A program made the translations under genes and the position numbers. From positions 62,001-126,000 of the forward strand of contig CACZBK010000015.1 of the NCBI GenBank assembly GCA_902779395.1: a stretch of 64,000 bases of DNA. Direction: 5' to 3'. Positions 18,593 to 50,568 of this stretch are shown in pieces. Origin of the DNA: an uncultured Lachnospiraceae bacterium. GTDB taxonomy: Bacteria > Bacillota > Clostridia > Lachnospirales > Lachnospiraceae. The notes below the pieces were generated by a model. It was not told the DNA's origin and searched no databases. It saw nothing but the letters and a program-made list of their open reading frames with translations. Within the stretch, counting starts at the first letter, position 1. Every line of letters begins with the position of its first letter.

Positions 18593-18621
18593 ATTGTATC
18601 AAAATCCGCCTAAAAAGTAAA
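18593..18621 (-). promoter_or_regulatory. Promoter of the rhomboid-like/sigma-like operon
   Basis: Minus-strand TTTACT (18616-18621), 17-bp spacer, TACAAT (18593-18598), with an extended -10 TG one base upstream. The -35 overlaps the U-tract of the preceding terminator. Confidence 0.65.
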
Positions 18622-18647
18622 CCGACCCCGAAAAATACTTCGGGGCC
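18612..18647 (-). terminator. Terminator of the MscS-type gene
   Basis: A 9-bp stem (18624-18632 with 18639-18647, GGCCCCGAA against TTCGGGGTC on the minus strand), followed by GG, TTTAC and TTTTT. It lies 28 bp past the stop at 18675. Confidence 0.8.
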
Positions 18648-18674
18648 GGCCGTTTACTCTGTTAATACTGACGA

Positions 18675-19883
18675 TCAGTCTTTTTTCTTATCCTCATCCA
18701 TTTTCTTCTCAAGCTTATCCAGCTGATCTGCGGCAAACTTCCTTCCGCCTACACCGAAGGCTACGGCAAATGCGATACCCAAAGCCGCAAGTATGATGAT
18801 AAATGCGGTATTTACTATAGCCGCTGCGATACCGAGCTGGTTGAGGGCCATAAATACAGCCACTACTATGATAGCCGCTTTGGCGAAGGCAGCATAATCC
18901 TTAAGCCCGCCCTTCTTCATGATCTTTTCAACTGCAGCAGCGCAGAAGAATGCAGCAATGATGATCAGCACTGCAGCAAGTACATTGGGCATATAGGAGA
19001 TCAGTCTCTCGCCTATTCCCGAAAGCACGGAAAGCTTAAGTACATCAACACCTTCAACTATAAAGAAGATATCAAGTACAATAGTGACAATAAGACCTAC
19101 AGTCTTTGAGAACACGAAATTCTTCGCCTTATCCCCGACAAGTTCCTTAACCTTTGCATCTGCCCCCGAAGAAGCGATAAGACGTGATACTATCTGTCCT
19201 GCAAATTTACCGATAAGAGCGCCTATCCAGATCAGGATGATGGCAACAACGATCTGGGGTATAAAGGTAAATACAACGGAAAGCATCGAAACCGCAGGAT
19301 TTGTTACCGCTGTGATGTTAAGAGCCTGAAGAGCAACGATAACAACAGGTATCATGATGAACACATATACGATATATGCCAGCGTTACGGAAAGACGTGC
19401 ATTATTATCAACCGTGATCCCCATCTTTTCCTGAAGCTGATCCACTTTAAGACGGATAAATACAGGTATAAGAAGTTCCCTTACAAGTTTTGCTATGATC
19501 GAGCCGGCAATAAGAACGATGATCGCAGCAAATATACTGGGAACATATCCCCATACGGCATTAAGAAGCTGCGTCAGCGGAGTAGCTATGGAACTTACTC
19601 CCAGTGCTGTAAATATTCCGGGAACAAAAAGAAGAAAAACAAAAAGATAAACAAACTTTCCGATGTAGTCAATTATACCGATGCCGGTATTTAACGGTGA
19701 ACCGCCCTGTACCCCGGGCTGTGCCATGTTGAGCTGCGCCAGTTTTGTTTTCTTAAGGAGATTCGTGACTATGTTACGCACAATGGAGCTTACGATAAAT
19801 GCCAGGATCAGCAAAAGAAATGCTGCCAGCACACCACCGATCGCACTTACGATCTTTGACAAGAGGTTACTAAAGTATTCCAT
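18675..19883 (-). CDS. MscS-related protein with TM-helix repeats
   Basis: 402 aa integral membrane protein. Repeated amphipathic segments of the type ALLTQLLNAVWGYVPSIFAAI, SVVFTFIPQIVVAIILIWIG and ISYMPNVLAAVLIIIAAFF match the conserved TM_helix unit (PF05552) found in a branch of the mechanosensitive-channel superfamily. The soluble MscS beta-domain is absent; the chain ends in a short charged tail (KKMDEDKKKD). It is probably a membrane pore or osmotic-response protein, with function inferred from family only. AAGGAGG precedes the ATG. It follows the response regulator gene by 48 bp and ends in a strong terminator. Confidence 0.85.
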   Translation of the reverse strand: MEYFSNLLSKIVSAIGGVLAAFLLLILAFIVSSIVRNIVTNLLKKTKLAQLNMAQPGVQGGSPLNTGIGIIDYIGKFVYLFVFLLFVPGIFTALGVSSIATPLTQLLNAVWGYVPSIFAAIIVLIAGSIIAKLVRELLIPVFIRLKVDQLQEKMGITVDNNARLSVTLAYIVYVFIMIPVVIVALQALNITAVTNPAVSMLSVVFTFIPQIVVAIILIWIGALIGKFAGQIVSRLIASSGADAKVKELVGDKAKNFVFSKTVGLIVTIVLDIFFIVEGVDVLKLSVLSGIGERLISYMPNVLAAVLIIIAAFFCAAAVEKIMKKGGLKDYAAFAKAAIIVVAVFMALNQLGIAAAIVNTAFIIILAALGIAFAVAFGVGGRKFAADQLDKLEKKMDEDKKKD

Positions 19884-19931: not shown

Positions 19932-20708
19932 TCATACGGTGTTTTTATTCCTATACTTCTGCTGTACAAAGAATTTTTCCAACGTCCCAAGAAGTGTTTT
20001 TCTGTCTATGGTCTTCAACAGGTAACCTGCAGGTTTAAGTGAAAGGACCTCCATTATGGCCTCTTTATCACTTTTCCCGGTAAGAAACATAACAGGGATC
20101 GATGCGGAACTCGATTCACTCTTAAGCATCTCAAAAACCTTCGATCCTTTGACCGTAGGCATCTCGTAATCAAGAAGTACAAGGTCCGCCTCATTATTCG
20201 CAAGCCAGGTGATCGCCTGCATCCCCGAATTCACCATGCTCACACGGTAATCATCCTTAAGCCATTCCTTTATAAGTTTCAGATATGTGGGATCATCATC
20301 CACAACCAGTATCATTTTCTTCTTCTGGAGAAGCGATTCCTCATCTATAAAATCGCCTATATGCTCCATCACCTTCGCCATATCGAAGGGTCTCGCATAT
20401 TCACCTTCCACCAGTTCGGGCGGGATTATCTTTTCCGCTTCATCCAGCTCATTCCGCCCGCCTATAAGGATAAGCTCCTTTTCATCCTCAAGCAAAAGAT
20501 CCTTTATGTACACCAGCGCATCTCTGTTTTCAGCAACAGCATCATCCGCATACAGGATCATAAGCCTGAAATAATCTTTAAGATTACTGATCTCCCTGAC
20601 ACTCAATGCACAGTCTCTGTAAGGATAAAGATTCTTTTCCATCTGCGATTTTATGGTATTCACAAGGAAGGTATCCTCATTCTTTATGAACAGTATGGGT
20701 TTAGCCAT
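19932..20708 (-). CDS. Response regulator with a pseudo-receiver and a true receiver domain
   Basis: 258 aa, no DNA-binding domain. Residues 1-122 have a receiver-like pattern (ILFIKNEDTFLVNTI, LILIGG, YARPFDMAKVMEHI) but no clear phosphoacceptor. Residues 130-250 form a complete receiver: acidic pair in VVDDDP, phosphoacceptor D180 in VLLDYEMP, Thr in FLTGK, Lys in LLKT. It lies 27 bp after the EAL/hybrid-kinase gene that ends in an HPt domain. It is therefore the obvious terminal phosphate acceptor of that relay, with output through protein contacts. Confidence 0.88.
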   Translation of the reverse strand: MAKPILFIKNEDTFLVNTIKSQMEKNLYPYRDCALSVREISNLKDYFRLMILYADDAVAENRDALVYIKDLLLEDEKELILIGGRNELDEAEKIIPPELVEGEYARPFDMAKVMEHIGDFIDEESLLQKKKMILVVDDDPTYLKLIKEWLKDDYRVSMVNSGMQAITWLANNEADLVLLDYEMPTVKGSKVFEMLKSESSSASIPVMFLTGKSDKEAIMEVLSLKPAGYLLKTIDRKTLLGTLEKFFVQQKYRNKNTV

Positions 20709-20735
20709 AAAACAGCTCCTTTACACGGTGCATCG

Positions 20736-23700
20736 TCAGATCCCGCTTAACAGATCACTTATCTCTTCCCATTTGAATTCCTCGGTAAGTGAACGTATCT
20801 TTGCTATCCTGTCCGCATCCGCAGGCTTTAGTTTATAGTCTTTAAGTGAATCCAGAACAAATATCATATTATCATAATCGAACATTTTTGCAAAATCCAT
20901 CATTGTAGCATATGCATCATGAAGATCATTATCCCCGATAGGAGTTTTGGACTCAGGCGTATCTTCCTCTGAGTCATCATCACCCAGCACATTCTCTAAA
21001 AGTCCGATCAGTTTACGATAATCCCTTAATAAAATATCAGTATCCGATATTATCGTCTTAATGTCAAGTTCATTTCCCGCTTTTTCAAGATCGGCAGCCA
21101 TTTGCGAAAGCTCCGCCGCCCCTATCACTTTAGAAGAGCTTTTAAGAGAATGCACCTGTATGGTATAAGCTTCCCAGTCTTCATCCTTAAAATATTTCTC
21201 TATATCCGCAGCCTTTTCATTTGCCCCGTTTAAATATATCTCAAGAACACTTCTGTATCCGGATACAGATCCGCAGTTTTTTATCCCGGATGCCGTATCC
21301 AGATCATTAAGCTTTCGAAGCCACGAATCCCCGGCACTGATATAAGCTTCATCCTCATCCGTATCACTGCCTGCAAGAAGGACTTTCGAAGCCGGAAGAA
21401 AATGTATGAGCATCTCCTCGAGTTTCGGACCTTCAACAGGCTTTATCATATATTCATCAAAACCTTCTTTCAAAAACCGCTCACGTGCACCGGTAACCGC
21501 ATTGGCCGTAAGTGCCACGACAGGCGTTTTCGCATTGGGATATTCTCCCAGGGATTTCATTATATGCAGAGTCTCGATGCCGTCCATCTCAGGCATCCTG
21601 AAATCAAGAAGTATGAGATCGTAATGCTTGTTGCTTACCATCTCAAGACATTCTTTACCGCTCATGGCTGTATCTATACGTATCTTCGTCTGTTTGAGCA
21701 GCTCCTTTATGACAAGATGATTGACAGGAGTATCATCCACGACAAGTATATCGGCATCCGGGGCCCTGAAACTTTCCTTATAGTTTGTCCGCTCCCTGGT
21801 ATTAACACTCAGATATCTGCTCCTGAAATCCCCTATATTATCATGTTTTATTATACGCTGGGGCAGACGTATCGTGAATGTCGACCCTTCACCGTAAACC
21901 GAATGGCAGACTATCTCGCCGTGCATGATCTGAAGAAGACTGTATGTGATGGCAAGTCCAAGTCCGCTTCCTTCTATATTTCTTGTATGTCCCGAATCAA
22001 ATCGCTGGAATTTGCCAAAGAGCTTTCCTATATCTTCCTCTTTTATCCCTATCCCCGTATCTGTCACGGCCACCGACAGCATCAGCCTGTCCCTGCCCGA
22101 AAGATTACCGTCTATCTCGAGCTTTACGCTTCCTTTTGCCGTATACTTTACCGCATTATTTAATACATTTACCATTATCTGACGCAGTCTCATCCCGTCA
22201 CCGAAGAGCGTATCCGGAAGATTGGGATTTACGATGATCTTAAATTCAAGATCTTTTTCATCAGCCTTTACCTGTATCATATTAACTACATCATTTACCA
22301 CAGAGCTCAGGTCATATTCTGCTTCTGCTATCTCCATGCTCCCTGATTCTATCTTGGAAAAATCAAGTATATCATTTATAAGCGAGATCAGTGTCCTGCC
22401 CGCACTCTCTATATTGTGAGCATGATCCAGTATCTGTCCGTTATTACTCTCACGCAGTATCATCTCATTCATTCCGAGTATGGCATTTATGGGCGTGCGT
22501 ATCTCATGAGACATGTTTGCCAGGAAGTTGGACTTTGCTTCACTTATAGCCCTGGCGCGCTGTTCCTCCATACGCGTAAGTTCGGTAACCCTCAGTATAC
22601 CCAGAAGTTCATTTTTGCTGACCGGTCTGGAGAAATAATAGCCCTGCAGATAATCCGCTTTCAGCTCCTCAAGAAGCGATACATGTTCCTGTGTTTCCAC
22701 ACCTTCAACAAGGATCTTAAGATCCATTTCCCTTATCATCCGAATGGTATTTTCAAGGATCACACTGCCTCTGCTCTTGCCGTTCTCCGGTTCTTCGACC
22801 GCTTCCCAGAGTATGGACTTATCGATCTTGATCACATCAAAATCGATAGAAAAAACACTCATTACATTCGAATATCCTATCCCGTAATCATCAAGAGACA
22901 GCAAAAATCCGGAGGCCTTAAGATCACCGAGTACAGTATCCAGCTCCGCATAATCACTTGCGGCAGCTGATTCCGTTACTTCAAAGTTGATAAAGTGCGG
23001 CATCACATCATATTTTCTGACAATGGAACGTATACGTTCAACAAAACCGGGCTGCAGGCACTGCAGAACGGAAAGATTGATCTCTATACAGTCAAGCCCC
23101 ATTTCGGTGGGAATACCGCTCGATAAAAACAGACATACCTCCTCAAGCACATATTCACCCAGTCTGTCGATCAGACCGTTCTGTTCGGCGATCGGTATAA
23201 ACTCATCCGGCATGATATTCCCAAGTTTGCTGTCCTTTAAGCGGAGCAAGGCCTCGGCAGAATAGATGGACATTCCTTTTGTGCGGTAAACAGGCTGGTA
23301 ATATACCTCAAAACGGTTCTCCGACAATCCTCTGTGAAGAGCGCTCTCAACTTCAGCCCTGCGTACAAGATAATTCAGTTCCGCTCCCTTGAGTATCCTG
23401 CCTTTTTCCCTTGCCGGAAGAGGCCCGTCACACATAAGCATCATATCGCTCCTGCGTTCAAATACCGCATCAACATCCGCGCACATCACAACACATGTCA
23501 GCATGATATTTGCATCCTGATACTCAAAGCTGTCATCAAATCGGCGGTATATCTCATCTCCCTTTGCCAGAGCCTCTTCAGCAGGCCCGGTATGTATCAG
23601 CATAAAAGAGTCCGGCGTAGTCCGGTATATATCCTCCCTGGAATGTACCGTCTTAAGATATCCCGATACCAGACTGATAAAAACATCATTATCTGTTGTA

Positions 23701-24368
23701 CCTATAAGGCGTCTTAAGGTCTCTGCATTCGTGATACGCACACAGATCACATTAAGTCCGCTCACCATTGTAAGACTGGTTTTCAGATCGCTTACCAGTG
23801 CAGCTCTGTTATTTACACCTGTCGAAAGATCCAGACGGTAATCTTCATTTTCTACCAGGATCATCATCCCGGTAAGACCGATCATCTCCGCAAACAGCTC
23901 ACTTCTTATATTCTGTATTACCATCTGAAGCACTATACCCGTAAGCGTGACCGTAAGGAAAAATAAAACCGTCCATTTTTTATTTCTGACCAGAGCCGGG
24001 ATCTGGTACAGGATCTTCCGGATCTTCTGTCTGGATCTGTCCATGAGCGCAGATACCCCGCTGCATACAAGGACATAAGCGAAAAACACGGCTCCGATCA
24101 GCGGATGTGTGATAAAATACAGAAAATGCATAGATCTTACGATAAATGCCGCAGCTGCATCGGACGCATAGAAAGGAGCCAGCATCAGTACCACGACACT
24201 GGTAAGGGCATTAAATACGATAAAGAGCACCGATATGCAGAATATCTTATTCTGCCTTTTATAGGTTCTGCCCTGGATCAGAGTCACGAGAAGAATACTC
24301 ACTCCAAGGATCAGGGTGGCGATCATTATAGCACTCTCATGCAGTTGTGATAATAAGATCTTCTCCAT
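20736..24368 (-). CDS. Membrane EAL phosphodiesterase fused to a hybrid histidine kinase with HPt
   Basis: 1210 aa from the ATG at 24368 (a further in-frame ATG at 24398 overlaps the previous gene). Order: ~5-6 membrane segments (to ~175); GGDEF-like domain with the motif lost (TTPDSF, ~175-310); EAL domain (~335-590) with intact EALLR, INLS, FEVTE, SLDDYG, VIKIDK and EGVE residues; HisKA with H621 in MSHEIRTP; HATPase with NNAVKYT, DTGIGI and GSGLGLA; receiver with D922 in LLDFRMPEMDG; HPt with H1073 in VHSLKSSS. The protein can plausibly both hydrolyse c-di-GMP and run a full His-Asp-His relay, delivering phosphate to the adjacent response regulator. The signal is unknown. Confidence 0.9.
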   Translation of the reverse strand: MEKILLSQLHESAIMIATLILGVSILLVTLIQGRTYKRQNKIFCISVLFIVFNALTSVVVLMLAPFYASDAAAAFIVRSMHFLYFITHPLIGAVFFAYVLVCSGVSALMDRSRQKIRKILYQIPALVRNKKWTVLFFLTVTLTGIVLQMVIQNIRSELFAEMIGLTGMMILVENEDYRLDLSTGVNNRAALVSDLKTSLTMVSGLNVICVRITNAETLRRLIGTTDNDVFISLVSGYLKTVHSREDIYRTTPDSFMLIHTGPAEEALAKGDEIYRRFDDSFEYQDANIMLTCVVMCADVDAVFERRSDMMLMCDGPLPAREKGRILKGAELNYLVRRAEVESALHRGLSENRFEVYYQPVYRTKGMSIYSAEALLRLKDSKLGNIMPDEFIPIAEQNGLIDRLGEYVLEEVCLFLSSGIPTEMGLDCIEINLSVLQCLQPGFVERIRSIVRKYDVMPHFINFEVTESAAASDYAELDTVLGDLKASGFLLSLDDYGIGYSNVMSVFSIDFDVIKIDKSILWEAVEEPENGKSRGSVILENTIRMIREMDLKILVEGVETQEHVSLLEELKADYLQGYYFSRPVSKNELLGILRVTELTRMEEQRARAISEAKSNFLANMSHEIRTPINAILGMNEMILRESNNGQILDHAHNIESAGRTLISLINDILDFSKIESGSMEIAEAEYDLSSVVNDVVNMIQVKADEKDLEFKIIVNPNLPDTLFGDGMRLRQIMVNVLNNAVKYTAKGSVKLEIDGNLSGRDRLMLSVAVTDTGIGIKEEDIGKLFGKFQRFDSGHTRNIEGSGLGLAITYSLLQIMHGEIVCHSVYGEGSTFTIRLPQRIIKHDNIGDFRSRYLSVNTRERTNYKESFRAPDADILVVDDTPVNHLVIKELLKQTKIRIDTAMSGKECLEMVSNKHYDLILLDFRMPEMDGIETLHIMKSLGEYPNAKTPVVALTANAVTGARERFLKEGFDEYMIKPVEGPKLEEMLIHFLPASKVLLAGSDTDEDEAYISAGDSWLRKLNDLDTASGIKNCGSVSGYRSVLEIYLNGANEKAADIEKYFKDEDWEAYTIQVHSLKSSSKVIGAAELSQMAADLEKAGNELDIKTIISDTDILLRDYRKLIGLLENVLGDDDSEEDTPESKTPIGDNDLHDAYATMMDFAKMFDYDNMIFVLDSLKDYKLKPADADRIAKIRSLTEEFKWEEISDLLSGI

Positions 24369-24375
24369 AACTTTC

Positions 24376-26283
24376 TCAGGCCGGATCTGCAAACTCATCT
24401 TCGCTTACGGGATATGAAAAATAATATCCCTGCATATAATCGACTTTAAGCTCCCTGAGCATTTTTATCTGTTCATCATTTTCAACCCCTTCAGCAAGTA
24501 TGCTCCGGTCAAGGTCCTTGATCATACGAACGGAATTTTCAAGCACAACCCTTCCGGTATCACTTTCCGCCGCTTCCCACAATATGTTCCTGTCTATCTT
24601 GACCACGTTGAAGTCAAGCGCAAATATAGCCTCCACATTGATATAACCGGATCCGAAATCCTCAAGCAGAAAAGAAAATCCGGCTTCTTTAAGCTTTGTC
24701 ATAAACTGCTCGAGCAGTTTATGATCTTCCCGGCTTACAGGCTTGGTTATCTCAAAAACAAGTTTATCCGGATCCACTCCGTAACCCTGCACAACATCTA
24801 TGATATGCCGCGCAAAATCCGAAACCATACACTGAACGAGTGAAAGATTTACATATATCTTTTCAAAGCCGTTTTTTTCAGGTATACCGCTTTTAATATA
24901 CCTGCATACATCATTAAGGACTATATCGCCGATCTGACGGATCTGCCCCGTCCGCTCAGCCTGAGGGATAAATTCAGCCGGCATGAGTTCTCCCAGCTTT
25001 TCATCATATAGTCTTACAAGAGCTTTAAGCGCGCAGGCTTTAAGATTATCCGATCTGACAATACTGTGATAGCAGATCGAGAAGCCGTTATTCTTAAGCC
25101 CTCTCGACATAGCCTCTTCCAGTTCATTTGACCTTCCAAGGTATCTGAGCATATTCTTACTGACTATCCCTCTTCCCTTATATGGCGGTCTGGGTCCGTC
25201 CACCATTAGCATTATATCCCTTACCCCGGAGATATCTGCAGGAACAGCCCCTCTTATGACTACTGCCCTGACAGGTGTGTCTATATCATCCAGATAGAGG
25301 CCTTCCATAAACTTCACATAGATCTTTTCCGATATGGCAACCGCTTCTTCCTCCGTAGAATCCATTATTATCATAAATGATGTATTTGTGGATCTGTGTA
25401 TACGATACCAGGGCAGTATACCTTTCAGATAATCCGCTACAGCCACCATCATCGGTTCTACTCCGCTCTTTCCAAGAAGGCGCATAAGAATATCATAATT
25501 TGTCAGACGTATGCATATCACATGAAAGCTCTGATCAAGGCGGAGGAGATTGTTTAAATGCCGCCTGAGCTCCTGGCGGTTATATACTCCGCATGATTTA
25601 TCCATACGGTCATCTTCATTTTCCATAGTCAGCATTATCCCCAAAAGCGTAAGTGATATGGCAAACAATTCACAGCTGACTCCCCTGTACAGAAAGTCAA
25701 AAAACATTCCTCCGAAAAGTACCGGGAAGAAAGTCAGCATTGCATATACCCGCTTTCTTACCAGCCCGTGTCTGTGTTTGATAAGATTCACGGCTCCTAT
25801 CGTTATATAGATAAATGCCATGAAATATGAGATCAGCAGACCGGGCCCGTATACCTCATTAAGTTCATCATCTATACTGTATACGATATGTCTGAACGGA
25901 TTGATAAAAAGCATGATCTCCATAAAAACCGACGGCCCGAAGAACAAAACCTTCTTTATGCCTGTAAGATGCCTGTGCGAACCGTTAGACATAATGATGT
26001 AATACAAAAACAGCATGGGCAGGAGCAGATGAAACAGCAGATTTATCCACTCCGTAAAATACAGTATCTGCCGCGCCGCATCTTTATCCATGTAAACAAG
26101 GCGTACTGTTATACCTGCCGATTTGCTGACCGAACAGATCATGGTAAAAACGCTCAATGTTATGAACAGTTTATTTCTGAAGCGGTCATTTTTATTAGAT
26201 GCGAGAGTATGCGTAAGCACAAGCATCGTAATAACGATAGCCGCCATCAGAAAAGCTGTCTGTTTTAATACATCAAATACCAT
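24376..26283 (-). CDS. Membrane GGDEF-like/EAL-like protein, probably catalytically inactive
   Basis: 635 aa from the ATG at 26283 (a GTG two codons upstream is possible). About seven membrane segments (to ~210) are followed by a GGDEF-like domain without GGDEF (TNTSF in its place) and an EAL-like domain. In the latter the signature reads KALVR, so the metal-binding Glu is Lys, and the DD pair reads LEDFGSGY. YVNLS, VVKIDR and EGVEN are kept. It lacks kinase domains and ends in EDEFADPA. It is a paralogue of both neighbours and lies between them (11 nt and ~8 nt gaps). It is likely a c-di-GMP receptor or a regulator of the flanking proteins rather than an enzyme; this is inference from the substitutions. 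Confidence 0.85.
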   Translation of the reverse strand: MVFDVLKQTAFLMAAIVITMLVLTHTLASNKNDRFRNKLFITLSVFTMICSVSKSAGITVRLVYMDKDAARQILYFTEWINLLFHLLLPMLFLYYIIMSNGSHRHLTGIKKVLFFGPSVFMEIMLFINPFRHIVYSIDDELNEVYGPGLLISYFMAFIYITIGAVNLIKHRHGLVRKRVYAMLTFFPVLFGGMFFDFLYRGVSCELFAISLTLLGIMLTMENEDDRMDKSCGVYNRQELRRHLNNLLRLDQSFHVICIRLTNYDILMRLLGKSGVEPMMVAVADYLKGILPWYRIHRSTNTSFMIIMDSTEEEAVAISEKIYVKFMEGLYLDDIDTPVRAVVIRGAVPADISGVRDIMLMVDGPRPPYKGRGIVSKNMLRYLGRSNELEEAMSRGLKNNGFSICYHSIVRSDNLKACALKALVRLYDEKLGELMPAEFIPQAERTGQIRQIGDIVLNDVCRYIKSGIPEKNGFEKIYVNLSLVQCMVSDFARHIIDVVQGYGVDPDKLVFEITKPVSREDHKLLEQFMTKLKEAGFSFLLEDFGSGYINVEAIFALDFNVVKIDRNILWEAAESDTGRVVLENSVRMIKDLDRSILAEGVENDEQIKMLRELKVDYMQGYYFSYPVSEDEFADPA

Positions 26284-26293
26284 GCACACCTGC

Positions 26294-29200
26294 CTATACG
26301 TAGAAAACTTTGCTTTCCGGAAGAAATCCCGTCAGAAGCTCCATAAGCTTTTTTCTTTCAACCGGTTTTTCCAGATGATCATCAAATCCCGCTTTACGCT
26401 CCGCTTCCCTGATCGCGGGATTTACGGCTGCTGTCATTGATATCACGGGCGACCTTCTGCTTACCGCCTCTGCCGAAGCTCTCAATGCTTTTAAGGTTTC
26501 CTCACCGCTCTTTCCGGGCATATTCTGATCCATAAATATGATATCATAATGCATTTCTCCGGCCTTTTGCAGCCCTTCCTCTCCGCTTAATGCCGTATCT
26601 ATACTGATATCCGTTTCCTTAAGCAGTTCAAGCAACACAACATGATTCAAAGGTGTATCATCAATGATCAGAAGTCTTGCATCCGGAGCTTTGAATTCCC
26701 TGCCTTCTTTTTTGCCGTTATCGATATCCTCCAGCTCATGATGCCTGAACGGTTTCATAAGCTCTTCTCCCACCTTCTTCTGGATCAGCTGAATGGTAAA
26801 AGTACTTCCCATACCGTATTCACTGTTAACATCGATCTGCCCCTGCATCATCTGAAGCAGATGATAGCTGATAGCCAGGCCAAGCCCGAAGCCTTCCACC
26901 GTACGGTTCTTTTCCATATCCAGCCTCTGAAACATCTCATAGAGCCGGCTCTGATCCTCTTCTCTTATCCCGCATCCTGTATCTTCAACACTCATCTTAA
27001 GCATCACTTCCGAATCATTGTATGTCTCTCCTTCCACAGTAAGGAGCACTCCGCCTTCAGATGTGTATTTCACCGCGTTATTCAGGATATTCATCATTAT
27101 CTGTTTAAGCCTGAACTCATCTCCGTAGAGCCTTGCAGGCAGTCCATCCGATATATTTACCCTGAAGCTTAAATGTTTCTGTTCAGTCTTTATATTTATC
27201 TCTTTTATCACATCACTCAAAGCAGCCTTAAGATCGTATTCCGCTTCCACTATCTCCATCTCTCCGGCTTCAATCTTTGAGTAATCAAGTATATTGTTTA
27301 TCAGCGACAGCAGATTACGCCCTGCTGCTTCCATCTCCCCGGCATAACGCATGATATTCTCTTCATCACATTCACGCAGTATCATCTCATTCATACCCAG
27401 TACCGCATTTATCGGGGTACGGATCTCATGTGACATATTAGCCAGAAAACTGGATTTCGCTTCACTGGCTGCAAGAGCTTTACGCTCCTCCATCCTGGCC
27501 AGTTCAGTCACCCTCAATATACCAAGAAGCTCATTCTTGGTAATAGGTCTTGACGAATAGTATCCCTGTACGTAATCCGCATCCAGTTTTTTTAACAGAT
27601 CTATCTGCTCCCTGCTTTCGACTCCTTCAACAAGTATACGCCTGTGCATCTGACGTATCATACGTACACAGCTTTCAAGAACGACCCTTCCTATGCTTCC
27701 GTCATCAGCTCTGTCAAGTATGCTCTTATCGATCTTGATAACATCAAAGTCAAGTGAATAAAGAGATCTGATATCGGAAAACCCAGTCCCGTAACTATCC
27801 ATCAGGAATCTGAAACCGTAATTTCTGAGTTCATTGATAGTAGACCTAAGTATATTGAATTCGGATGCCGCCGCCGATTCTTTTATCTCAAAACTGATCC
27901 TTGAAGGCGAGATATCATAATGAAGGACCTTATCCTTTACATATCCGGCAAACCCCGGTTTCATACACTGAAGGATCGATATATTCATACTTATATATTC
28001 TATGCCCATTTCCACAGGAAGACCGCTGGCAAGAAAAAGACATACTTCATCAAAAACAAAATCGCCTATCTTATCTATCAACCCGTCACGTTCGGCTATG
28101 GGAATGAATTCCGAAGGCGGGATATCTCCAAGTTCACTGTCATGCAGTCGTATCAGCGCCTCCGCAGAATGAATATTCAGATTTTCCAGGAAATAAACCG
28201 GCTGGTAAAATACTTCAAAATTATGTTCTTTAAAACCGCGCCTTAAAGCACGTTCAACCCTGATGCTTCGTTTTATCGCCTCAAGGCCGGTATCCGTAAC
28301 AGGATTTTTGTACATATCCTGCGTGACAGGGGTATCTGTCATAAGGAATACTTCGTCAACACTGCTTATATCCCTGGGATAATTGGCATACATTACCAGC
28401 GCCTGCAGCTTAAGTTCCACATCCTCGGCCCTGTATGGCTCATCAAAACGCTTCCTTATCGCAACTGCCTGTTCTCCGGCCTCTTCCACGCTCTGTCCAA
28501 GTCCTACCAGCACAAAACAGTTGGTGCTCATTTTGTAGATATGATAATAGGGCATGATGGTTTTTAAATACTTTGCCACATCATCTATAATACTTTCATG
28601 ATTGTAATTTCCGGTAAGCTTTTCTATTACATCGTCATCATTTATATAGACCATGGTAACCGAAAATTCCTGCCCTATGCTTATATAGCTGTTCAGGTCT
28701 ATATTCAGGGCATTACGGTTAAGAAGACCGCTTCCCAGATCCAGTCTTTCTTCGTCATTTTCAATGAATATCATCGCACACATCAGTGCTATAGATTCAA
28801 AGAATATCTCAACCTGCGCCTTATTCTGGACAAACTGGATCAGGATACCGAGCATTGTAAGAACATAGAGAGAAAAAAGACCGTAGCGGCATCTGGGGAT
28901 CACAACATACCAGCGTTTTGCCAGATCCACCAGAGCCAGTACAAAGTAAAGCCCTGCCAAAAGATAATAAACAATAATAAACGGAGAACGTATATATCCA
29001 AGATCATCATTAATACGATAAAGTATACCCGTGAAAGGATTGATCAGGACCAGTATTTCCATCAGGAGAAACGGGATCATCAAAACAGAGAAATGCCATC
29101 TGTGTTTGCGCATAAGGAACACCGAACCGCTGATATATATCATATATACATATAACAGAGGAGCAAGAAGCGCATGAGAAAAGAAATACACAAACAGACA

Positions 29201-29434
29201 GACTCTCCGGATCATAATGGCCATATGGATATCACCCGTAAACAGCGCAGCATATACACTTCCGGTATCGGATATGCCTCCGGCCATAACACACAAAAGG
29301 AAATAAATATATACCCTGTTCTGTTCTCGTTTAGTCTTGCCGCGGATAAAGGTATATATAAGGGAAGACAGGCAAATGAAAAAACCTGCCAGATAGAAGG
29401 ACGCATCATAAAAAAGTGACAGACGCTCTCCCAA
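26294..29434 (-). CDS. Membrane EAL protein fused to a hybrid histidine kinase (no HPt)
   Basis: 1046 aa from a TTG at 29434, which has AAGGGGG 6 nt upstream; the in-frame TTG at 29440 sits too close to that site. Order: ~7 membrane segments (to ~220); GGDEF-like domain with STNCF in place of the motif; EAL domain (~390-640) with SAEALIRL, MNIS, FEIKE, VIKIDK and EGVE, but the DD pair is MDSYG (second Asp lost); HisKA H669 in MSHEIRTP; HATPase (NNAVKYT, DTGCGI, GFGLGLA); receiver D969 in FMDQNMPG. It is the first gene of the three-paralogue operon and has no HPt, so phosphate may pass through the HPt of the third protein. Confidence 0.88.
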   Translation of the reverse strand: MGERLSLFYDASFYLAGFFICLSSLIYTFIRGKTKREQNRVYIYFLLCVMAGGISDTGSVYAALFTGDIHMAIMIRRVCLFVYFFSHALLAPLLYVYMIYISGSVFLMRKHRWHFSVLMIPFLLMEILVLINPFTGILYRINDDLGYIRSPFIIVYYLLAGLYFVLALVDLAKRWYVVIPRCRYGLFSLYVLTMLGILIQFVQNKAQVEIFFESIALMCAMIFIENDEERLDLGSGLLNRNALNIDLNSYISIGQEFSVTMVYINDDDVIEKLTGNYNHESIIDDVAKYLKTIMPYYHIYKMSTNCFVLVGLGQSVEEAGEQAVAIRKRFDEPYRAEDVELKLQALVMYANYPRDISSVDEVFLMTDTPVTQDMYKNPVTDTGLEAIKRSIRVERALRRGFKEHNFEVFYQPVYFLENLNIHSAEALIRLHDSELGDIPPSEFIPIAERDGLIDKIGDFVFDEVCLFLASGLPVEMGIEYISMNISILQCMKPGFAGYVKDKVLHYDISPSRISFEIKESAAASEFNILRSTINELRNYGFRFLMDSYGTGFSDIRSLYSLDFDVIKIDKSILDRADDGSIGRVVLESCVRMIRQMHRRILVEGVESREQIDLLKKLDADYVQGYYSSRPITKNELLGILRVTELARMEERKALAASEAKSSFLANMSHEIRTPINAVLGMNEMILRECDEENIMRYAGEMEAAGRNLLSLINNILDYSKIEAGEMEIVEAEYDLKAALSDVIKEINIKTEQKHLSFRVNISDGLPARLYGDEFRLKQIMMNILNNAVKYTSEGGVLLTVEGETYNDSEVMLKMSVEDTGCGIREEDQSRLYEMFQRLDMEKNRTVEGFGLGLAISYHLLQMMQGQIDVNSEYGMGSTFTIQLIQKKVGEELMKPFRHHELEDIDNGKKEGREFKAPDARLLIIDDTPLNHVVLLELLKETDISIDTALSGEEGLQKAGEMHYDIIFMDQNMPGKSGEETLKALRASAEAVSRRSPVISMTAAVNPAIREAERKAGFDDHLEKPVERKKLMELLTGFLPESKVFYV

Positions 29435-29468
29435 AGACAACCCCCTTTTTGTATATATTTACGATTGT

Positions 29469-50216: not shown

Positions 50217-50234
50217 ATCCCCCAATAAAAAGCG

Positions 50235-50568
50235 TGGACCTGAGGGGAATCGAACCCCTGTCCGAAATGCCCGCCATTGCCCTTCTACTATCATAGTCGG
50301 TGATCAGTCATTCCCTCTGCCGTTATGTCATCGACAACGTAACGGTTTTAGTAGCTTCATGGATCTGCCGTATGCTCAAAGCTTTGCATACGCGTTTCCT
50401 GCGATCCGACGCCCTTACCTCAACGCGCAGGTGCGAAGAGAAGGACGGGCTGCACTTAGGCAGCCAGTGCTAAATTATCTTCAGCGTTTAGTTTAATTTT
50501 CGGGTTTAACGCACTCCTGCGGATAGCTTCTTCAACTTAAGACACCCCGTCGAAACCTTATCAAGCCC
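50235..50568 (-). ncRNA. ssrA: tmRNA (ssrA), 334 nt
   Basis: Transfer-messenger RNA for ribosome rescue. The ends pair as an acceptor stem GGGCTTG with CAGGTCC (50562-50568 with 50236-50242, two wobble pairs). The 5' side continues GGTTTCGACGGGG, conserved in tmRNAs. The T arm is AGGGG TTCGATT CCCCT. The discriminator is A and CCA is not encoded. The tag frame (50456-50485) reads AEDNLALAA then stop, starting at GCT after the usual TAAAC context. It follows smpB by 147 bp, its protein partner. A TATAAT sits 9 nt upstream of the 5' end and a TTTTT follows the 3' end. Confidence 0.96.

What the first reader, a model, noticed from the sequence alone, without database searches (positions are those of the whole stretch)
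19932..29434. Three tandem membrane EAL proteins, two fused to hybrid histidine kinases, with a double-receiver regulator
Seen directly: one operon encodes three paralogues with the same N-terminal membrane plus GGDEF-like plus EAL-like layout. Two continue into HisKA-HATPase-receiver, one of them with an HPt. A DNA-binding-free response regulator with a degenerate and a complete receiver follows. Known: EAL domains degrade c-di-GMP and hybrid kinases run phosphorelays, but the two are normally separate proteins. Inference: these chains couple c-di-GMP turnover to a phosphorelay, perhaps with the EAL part acting as the sensor that gates the kinase, and phosphate passing through the single HPt to the last gene's receiver.
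Basis: partly seen in the sequence, partly recalled or inferred. Interest (0 to 1): 0.75.

Follow-up and report, generated by a model that had tools for sequence, protein, structure and literature searches.

The report
EAL domains wired into sensor kinases
In bacteria from the ruminant gut, a domain that normally destroys the messenger c-di-GMP has been built into the sensing end of a membrane signalling kinase, where it probably reads the messenger and controls a phosphate relay to a dedicated two-receiver partner protein.

Summary
Four minus-strand genes C (29440-26294), B (26289-24376), A (24398-20736) and D (20708-19932) encode 7TM-dGGDEF-EAL-kinase-REC, 7TM-dGGDEF-EAL, 7TM-dGGDEF-EAL-kinase-REC-HPt and a double receiver. 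No assembly join is involved: gene order and fusions recur in 11 other genomes of the genus, and fusion-D pairs recur in other gut Lachnospiraceae.

Across 52 fused proteins the kinase residues are essentially invariant, and the EAL-to-phosphohistidine spacing is 46 residues in 52 of 52. The full EAL set of 13 scored residues survives in only 13 of 52, against 53 of 55 unfused relatives outside such loci. A 14-protein clade keeps the binding pocket but has lost the essential Glu (RocR E352). Some sister kinases with HPt and a D-type partner carry FIST or, by eye, PAS-like or Cache-like input there. So the EAL is most likely an input domain and the kinase the output.

In this operon A keeps all scored residues, while B and C carry fixed, different losses. 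Most likely c-di-GMP binding by the EALs gates the kinases, and phosphate flows through A's HPt to D. Ligand, direction and relay are inferred, not shown. New variant of c-di-GMP-responsive kinases.

The parts
26294..29440 (-). Gene C: 7TM - degenerate GGDEF - EAL (degenerate) - HisKA - HATPase - receiver, no HPt; start 29440 or 29434
27545..28252 (-). EAL domain of C: T267->K and D296->S relative to RocR numbering; changed in 12 of 12 orthologues (K/N and S/G/R)
27461..27553 (-). C linker from EAL end to HisKA; predicted as one helix with DHp helix 1; 46 residues from the QGY Gln to the phospho-His
27263..27460 (-). C HisKA (phospho-acceptor His intact)
26786..27124 (-). C HATPase_c (N, G1, G2 boxes intact)
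26333..26671 (-). C receiver (DD, D, T, K intact)
24376..26289 (-). Gene B: 7TM - degenerate GGDEF - EAL, no kinase
24409..25116 (-). EAL domain of B: E175->K, E268->K, D295->E (RocR numbering), the same changes in 12, 11 and 12 of 12 orthologues
20736..24398 (-). Gene A: 7TM (shortened here) - degenerate GGDEF - EAL (catalytic set intact) - HisKA - HATPase - receiver - HPt - tail
22623..23342 (-). EAL domain of A: all 13 scored positions intact
22539..22631 (-). A linker from EAL to HisKA, the most conserved segment of the protein (0.96 mean pairwise identity among 12 orthologues)
22341..22538 (-). A HisKA
21855..22202 (-). A HATPase_c
21408..21749 (-). A receiver
21072..21248 (-). A HPt domain (phospho-acceptor His intact)
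19932..20708 (-). Gene D: double receiver without output domain
20337..20708 (-). D first receiver: receiver fold, acidic pair lost, Lys->Arg, one Asp (D55) invariant in 22 of 22
19983..20312 (-). D second receiver, complete

Best explanation
A and C are 7TM hybrid histidine kinases in which a degenerate GGDEF plus an EAL domain occupies the cytoplasmic input slot. The EAL domain senses c-di-GMP (A may also hydrolyse it). Its ligand and dimer state is passed through one continuous helix of fixed length to the DHp helix, which changes autokinase or phosphatase activity. Phosphate passes His -> own receiver -> A's single HPt -> second receiver of D, which acts by protein contact because it has no output domain. 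C, having no HPt, must use A's, as a heterodimer or in trans. B is a kinase-less, non-catalytic relative that probably tunes A and C by dimerisation or by competing for c-di-GMP. Shown: domains, conservation, gene linkage, and that kinase residues outlast EAL catalytic residues. Inferred: the ligand, the direction of control, the phosphotransfer route and the role of B.
For: Kinase residues intact across fusions: HisKA His 52/52, G1 Asp 52/52, receiver Asp and Lys 51/51, HPt His 39/39 of those with an HPt. EAL set of 13 positions intact in 13/52 fused, 0/23 unfused EALs sharing a locus with a fusion, 53/55 unfused EALs elsewhere. A 14-row clade has lost E352 (S/T/A) plus, in 6 rows, T267 and, in 1 row, D296, yet its 11 other pocket positions have 0.99 within-clade identity against 0.66 background. 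TBD1265 E703A, the equivalent of E352, abolished PDE activity (passage of PMC12943098). The Q372-to-His distance is 46 in 52/52, and the linker is the most conserved segment (0.96 in A, 0.93 in C; EAL 0.80 and 0.75). The model shows one helix 626-681 carrying the His at 662. Some kinases with the same HK-REC-HPt-tail and a D-type neighbour have FIST domains (L043, L045) or, by eye, 7TM-PAS-like (L036) or Cache-like (L038) input instead. D lies in the locus in 32 of 34 HPt+tail fusions outside the window, immediately next in 29. All 13 HPt-less fusions accompany an HPt-bearing A, one of them on another contig of the same genome.
Against: A of this window and its 11 close orthologues keep every scored catalytic residue, so here the EAL may simply be an enzyme. 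In the unnamed genus g27 (8 loci) even the pocket is gone (identity 0.41 against 0.59 background), so c-di-GMP cannot be the ligand in every member. Fusion needs only two changes on the tree, so the association of fusion with catalytic loss cannot be tested by independent pairs (1 supported pair, 3 at most); counts of rows are not independent events. Three fusions (L106-L108) have HPt but no tail and no D. Only 5 of 16 non-EAL relatives (L036-L051, 1.5 kb flanks) show a D-type neighbour, and 0 of 20 (L083-L102, flanks that often end inside the kinase), so the shared-chassis argument rests on few loci. The linker helix has pLDDT of about 50-69 (below 50 at residues 646-655), and only a monomer was modelled.
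Confidence: 0.6

Rival explanations
1. The reverse direction: the kinase is the controller and the EAL is the output, so that phosphorylation state switches c-di-GMP hydrolysis by A.
For: A's EAL keeps all 13 scored residues in 12 of 12 proteins of the window's A clade.
Against: In 39 of 52 fusions the EAL has lost needed residues while the kinase, receiver and HPt stay intact. The EAL is N-terminal, in the slot that FIST and PAS-like input occupies in some sister kinases. A dedicated receiver gene D follows as a separate target.
Confidence: 0.15
2. The EAL domains are now purely structural: a dimerisation and signal-relay module between the 7TM sensor and the kinase, with no nucleotide ligand.
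For: In g27 fusions and in A-type L143, L173, L178 and L179 substrate-binding or metal residues are lost widely, yet linker length and kinase are kept.
Against: In the window clades A, B, C and in the E352-less clade the 11 pocket positions other than E352 and T267 have 0.94-1.00 within-clade identity against 0.60-0.80 background, which a pure scaffold would not need.
Confidence: 0.18
3. Two independent activities merely tethered: membrane PDE and hybrid kinase share only localisation.
For: No biochemical link is known; the two EAL-kinase chains read elsewhere have PAS between the parts.
Against: Zero variation of the 46-residue spacing in 52 fusions and the highest conservation in the linker argue for mechanical coupling.
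Confidence: 0.06
4. Assembly or frameshift artefact joining separate genes.
For: Two of the 13 other genomes of the genus read have a broken frame in one of these genes (C in L053, A in L062).
Against: Both breaks lie beyond the EAL-HisKA junction, and the junction recurs in many separate assemblies.
Confidence: 0.01

Closest known systems
SgmT (Myxococcus xanthus) hybrid histidine kinase with a c-di-GMP-binding GGDEF domain (PMC3509222, abstract and outline read)
   Same: A hybrid kinase carrying a c-di-GMP-turnover domain used as a receptor.
   Different: There the receptor is a C-terminal GGDEF used for spatial sequestration and a GAF is the primary sensor; here an EAL sits N-terminal, joined by one helix to HisKA, behind 7TM, with HPt and a double-receiver partner.
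RavS-RavR (Xanthomonas campestris; PMC6707612, abstract and outline read)
   Same: c-di-GMP acts on a histidine kinase, and an EAL protein feeds back by degrading it.
   Different: RavS binds c-di-GMP in its CA region and the EAL is in the separate response regulator RavR.
CckA (Caulobacter; passage of PMC12564702)
   Same: c-di-GMP switches a kinase that feeds a phosphorelay.
   Different: c-di-GMP controls the kinase/phosphatase balance of CckA; no EAL domain is present (recalled).
LapD and FimX type degenerate GGDEF-EAL receptors (passages of PMC12564702; PDB relatives)
   Same: Catalytically degenerate EAL binding c-di-GMP, membrane-bound in LapD; B of the window has this layout.
   Different: No kinase; LapD has a periplasmic output and a HAMP/S-helix (recalled), while these proteins have 7TM.
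EAL plus kinase chains on Bacillales plasmids (Peribacillus asahii L217, Aneurinibacillus L218)
   Same: EAL and HisKA-HATPase in one chain.
   Different: At least one (L217) or two (L218) PAS domains lie between EAL and HisKA; no receiver, Hpt or 7TM-like family was found in L218 or in the 1245-residue part of L217 scanned; L217 also has a strong GGDEF match. Of the 13 plasmid records covering 80% of the query only three were opened; in the third (L219) the two matched genes are separate.
PleD double receiver (top fold match of D)
   Same: Two receivers in tandem, one of them degenerate (the degeneracy in PleD is recalled).
   Different: D has no GGDEF output and its first, not second, receiver is degenerate.

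Membership tests
Hybrid histidine kinase with phosphorelay | HisKA His, N/G1/G2 boxes and receiver Asp intact | tested here: met
   A and C of the window and their orthologues; His 52/52, receiver Asp 51/51
Hybrid histidine kinase with phosphorelay | HPt and a terminal receiver | tested here: met
   HPt in A only; D has a complete second receiver
Hybrid histidine kinase with phosphorelay | Phosphotransfer between the parts | not testable with these tools
   needs biochemistry
Catalytic EAL phosphodiesterase | Full metal, base and substrate residues (RocR Q161, E175, R179, N233, E265, D295, D296, K316, E352) in A | tested here: met
   A only, 12 of 12 proteins of its clade; K316 as a catalytic residue is recalled
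Catalytic EAL phosphodiesterase | Same set in B and C | tested here: not met
   B: E175K, D295E (and E268K); C: D296S/G/R (and T267K/N)
Catalytic EAL phosphodiesterase | Hydrolysis of c-di-GMP | not testable with these tools
   needs an assay
Catalytic GGDEF cyclase | GG[DE]EF signature | tested here: not met
   absent in A, B, C and all orthologues aligned
LapD-like c-di-GMP receptor | Membrane protein with degenerate GGDEF and EAL | tested here: met
   B and C
LapD-like c-di-GMP receptor | Periplasmic domain plus HAMP/S-helix and a LapG-like partner | tested here: inconclusive
   membrane helices in the model of C and no such domain in Pfam; a LapG partner was not searched for
c-di-GMP-responsive histidine kinase (SgmT, CckA, RavS kind) | c-di-GMP binding that alters the kinase | not testable with these tools
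   inferred from pocket conservation
Double receiver (REC-REC) protein | Two receiver folds, no output domain | tested here: met
   model and alignment of D

The most novel reading that the evidence does not exclude
The operon is a self-resetting c-di-GMP comparator: three paralogous EAL subunits with different, fixed active-site states (A hydrolyses, B carries Lys and C carries changed metal-site residues and only bind) form mixed dimers with a shared DHp and a single HPt, so that occupancy and hydrolysis of c-di-GMP are converted directly into phosphate flow to D. Trigger-enzyme logic would thus be fused into a kinase.
Probability: 0.22. Interest if true: 0.8.

Novelty: new variant of a known kind. 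Interest (0 to 1): 0.6.

Why it matters
Second-messenger and phosphorelay signalling are usually joined through separate proteins. Here an EAL domain stands in the input slot of a hybrid kinase with an invariant helical spacing, and a graded series of natural variants exists: catalytic set intact, base-less but pocket-intact, metal-site-changed, pocket-lost. That series makes it directly testable how a phosphodiesterase fold becomes a signal input. It also offers an entry to c-di-GMP signalling in gut Lachnospiraceae, for which the paper searches listed nothing on such proteins.

Tried and rejected
Assembly or frameshift explanation: rejected by recurrence. Kinase-controls-PDE: kept as a rival but disfavoured. 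Gene conversion as the reason for the similar A and C linkers: not supported, since of 100 linker+HisKA codons 39 differ synonymously and 27 non-synonymously. A phylogenetically independent test of 'fusion goes with catalytic loss' is not possible, with 1 supported pair and 3 at most. One search was a first residue table on the 80 named loci; one search replaced it after removing 10 same-contig duplicates and adding other genomes; frames under 500 residues (such as L176) were dropped, and near-copies such as L107/L108 and L185/L186 were kept. The order search scored at most 10 candidates a genome and cut its listing, so its count of full-length junctions (own genome plus 9) is a lower bound. 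Literature: searches listed no paper that, by title, start of abstract or the passages I opened, describes an EAL joined directly to HisKA; the one hit proved to be a phrase about two separate protein types. The library holds only open-licence papers. For papers not named with a read call only the listing was seen.
Full report
CHECK OF THE OBSERVATION. The four frames are open on the minus strand and lie almost end to end: C-B gap 4 bases, B-A overlap 23 (none if A starts 10 codons later), A-D gap 27, recG-C gap 41. Pfam gives EAL in C (397-632), B (392-627) and A (353-592); HisKA, HATPase_c and Response_reg in C and A; Hpt in A (1051-1109); and one receiver in D. GGDEF is below cut-off or undetected, and the 7TM family HisKA_7TM is a weak, sub-threshold match in B. 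A model of C residues 10-904 shows seven membrane-helix segments (the fourth broken), an alpha/beta GGDEF-like domain, the EAL barrel and then one helix at model residues 626-681 that carries the phospho-acceptor His at 662 (mean pLDDT 79; linker about 50-69, below 50 at 646-655). D is two complete receiver folds (mean pLDDT 87); its best PDB match is PleD. The window lies in G000, contig 15. A and C are the only 2 of its 21 EAL matches with a kinase: 9 long frames were scanned with Pfam, and all 21 short loci with HMMs made here. Upstream neighbours are RecG, FakA-like and Asp23 genes, and an MS_channel gene follows D.

RECURRENCE. In 11 other genomes of the genus the order recG-C-B-A-D is the same; in G010 it is split over two contigs and in G032 the contig ends inside A. 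Two more genomes of the genus (G014, G033) have A and D without C or B in the stretch fetched. In the genus search 14 of 35 genomes have the junction. In an order-wide sample of 392 genomes the full-length junction was listed for the own genome plus nine others, eight of them one genus, g27 (a lower bound). In a phylum-wide sample of 398 it was found in two, including the own genome, at E 1e-42. A capped scan of named genomes gave 80 loci, mostly ruminant-gut MAGs labelled Lachnospiraceae, with Eubacterium, Ruminococcus, Oscillospiraceae and a few Selenomonadales labels. Seven of them are the window's clade; 17 others carry EAL-kinase chains, besides L145 and L149, which are G033 and G014. Nearly all the rest are unfused 7TM-dGGDEF-EAL proteins.

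WHICH PARTS ARE KEPT. After removing 10 duplicate contigs the set has 52 fused EALs, 78 unfused 7TM EALs and 9 others. Thirteen positions named by RocR numbers were read. Residue roles come from passages of PMC7911125 (substrate Q161, R179; metal E175, N233, E265, D295, D296, E352) and PMC12943098 (E703A of TBD1265, the E352 equivalent, abolishes activity; the E355 equivalent is not needed); T267, E268, K316 and Q372 as landmarks are recalled. All 13 are intact in 13 of 52 fused EALs (the 12 window-type A proteins plus L140), in 0 of 23 unfused EALs that share a locus with a fusion, and in 53 of 55 unfused EALs elsewhere (exceptions L072_2349 and L112). Kinase residues stay: His 52/52, second N-box Asn 52/52 (first 51/52), G1 Asp 52/52, receiver Asp and Lys 51/51 (one row ends before the receiver), HPt His 39/39.

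Within the fusions the losses differ by clade. In 14 rows E352 is S, T or A while the 11 other pocket positions (T267 set aside) have 0.99 identity against 0.66 background. In the window's C clade T267 is K or N and D296 is S, G or R in 12 of 12. In the B clade E175 is K and D295 is E in 12 of 12, and E268 is K in 11 of 12. In g27 the pocket itself is lost (0.41 against 0.59). This is the pattern of a domain kept for signalling rather than for turnover. The tree needs only two changes for fusion, so a formal independent-contrast test is impossible.

COUPLING. From the QGY Gln to the kinase His there are 46 residues in 52 of 52 fusions, with no indel, although EAL, TM and GGDEF-like parts diverge strongly. 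In the window genus the linker is the most conserved segment of A (0.96) and C (0.93), and A against C is 0.83 there but 0.54 in EAL and 0.28 in the TM part (G031's broken C left out). Codons of A and C in this region differ at many synonymous sites, so this is selection rather than recent copying.

PARTNERS. D lies in the locus, on the same strand, in 32 of 34 HPt+tail fusions outside the window: 29 immediately next, 3 with one B-like gene between; the two misses are at contig ends (L061, L173). D also follows the broken A of L062. L106-L108, with HPt but without the tail, have no D. All 13 HPt-less fusions occur with an HPt-bearing A. Among 16 non-EAL relatives of the kinase (L036-L051, 1.5 kb flanks) five have a D-type neighbour: two with FIST domains (L043, L045) and, read by eye, a 7TM-PAS-like one (L036) and Cache-like input (L038; L040 looks alike in length and domains); 11 show none, and none of 20 further loci (L083-L102) whose short flanks often end inside the kinase. 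So the EAL unit looks like one of several interchangeable inputs on one phosphorelay chassis, on the evidence of few loci. D has no close paralogue in its own genome: best other match 5.9e-24 against 8.1e-121, and the other matches cover mainly the second receiver (position 94 onward).

MECHANISM. I take the EALs as c-di-GMP inputs that change the dimer at the head of the DHp helix, with phosphate going through A's HPt to D (0.6). The genome has much c-di-GMP machinery for such a sensor to read: 55 GGDEF, 21 EAL and 3 PilZ matches. A may in addition destroy the ligand and so reset the signal. B and C are predicted non-catalytic. None of this is biochemically shown.

KNOWN SYSTEMS. c-di-GMP-responsive kinases exist (SgmT, CckA, RavS), as do degenerate EAL receptors (LapD, FimX). 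EAL and kinase in one chain also occur on Bacillales plasmids, with PAS between them. What I did not find in the searches named in Tried and rejected is an EAL wired directly by a fixed helix to HisKA, with a three-paralogue division of active-site states. Hence 'new variant of a known kind'.

LIMITS. Many of the genomes are MAGs; catalytic state is judged from sequence; models are monomers; and the paper library is open-licence only.

Noticed in passing
window 23985-23990 (A, between residues 137 and 138): A of this genome lacks 55-56 residues (a membrane helix, an outer loop with a conserved Arg, a second membrane helix) that all 13 compared orthologues have; the gap is in frame. Real deletion or assembly error was not resolved.
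   Followed up: partly
L053:5448-8588 and L062:9897-13714: C of G031 is broken between HATPase and receiver, and A of G022 is broken after the HPt; both breaks lie beyond the EAL-kinase junction.
   Followed up: no
window 18620-19883: A gene with mechanosensitive-channel helices starts 48 bases after D, and the strongest terminator-like hairpin lies only after it (18651-18620), so the transcript may run beyond D.
   Followed up: no
L072:2361-6205 (G000 contig 7): Another tandem pair of about 640-residue EAL proteins in the same genome, one with intact and one with degenerate catalytic positions.
   Followed up: partly
L043:202-4141 and L045:658-4632: FIST-domain hybrid kinases with HPt followed by the same kind of double-receiver protein as D.
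   Followed up: partly
L067:1894-5205: An EAL domain joined to LacI-type periplasmic-binding-protein-like domains in one chain.
   Followed up: no
window 50232-50568: tmRNA gene on the minus strand, tag peptide AEDNLALAA.
   Followed up: no
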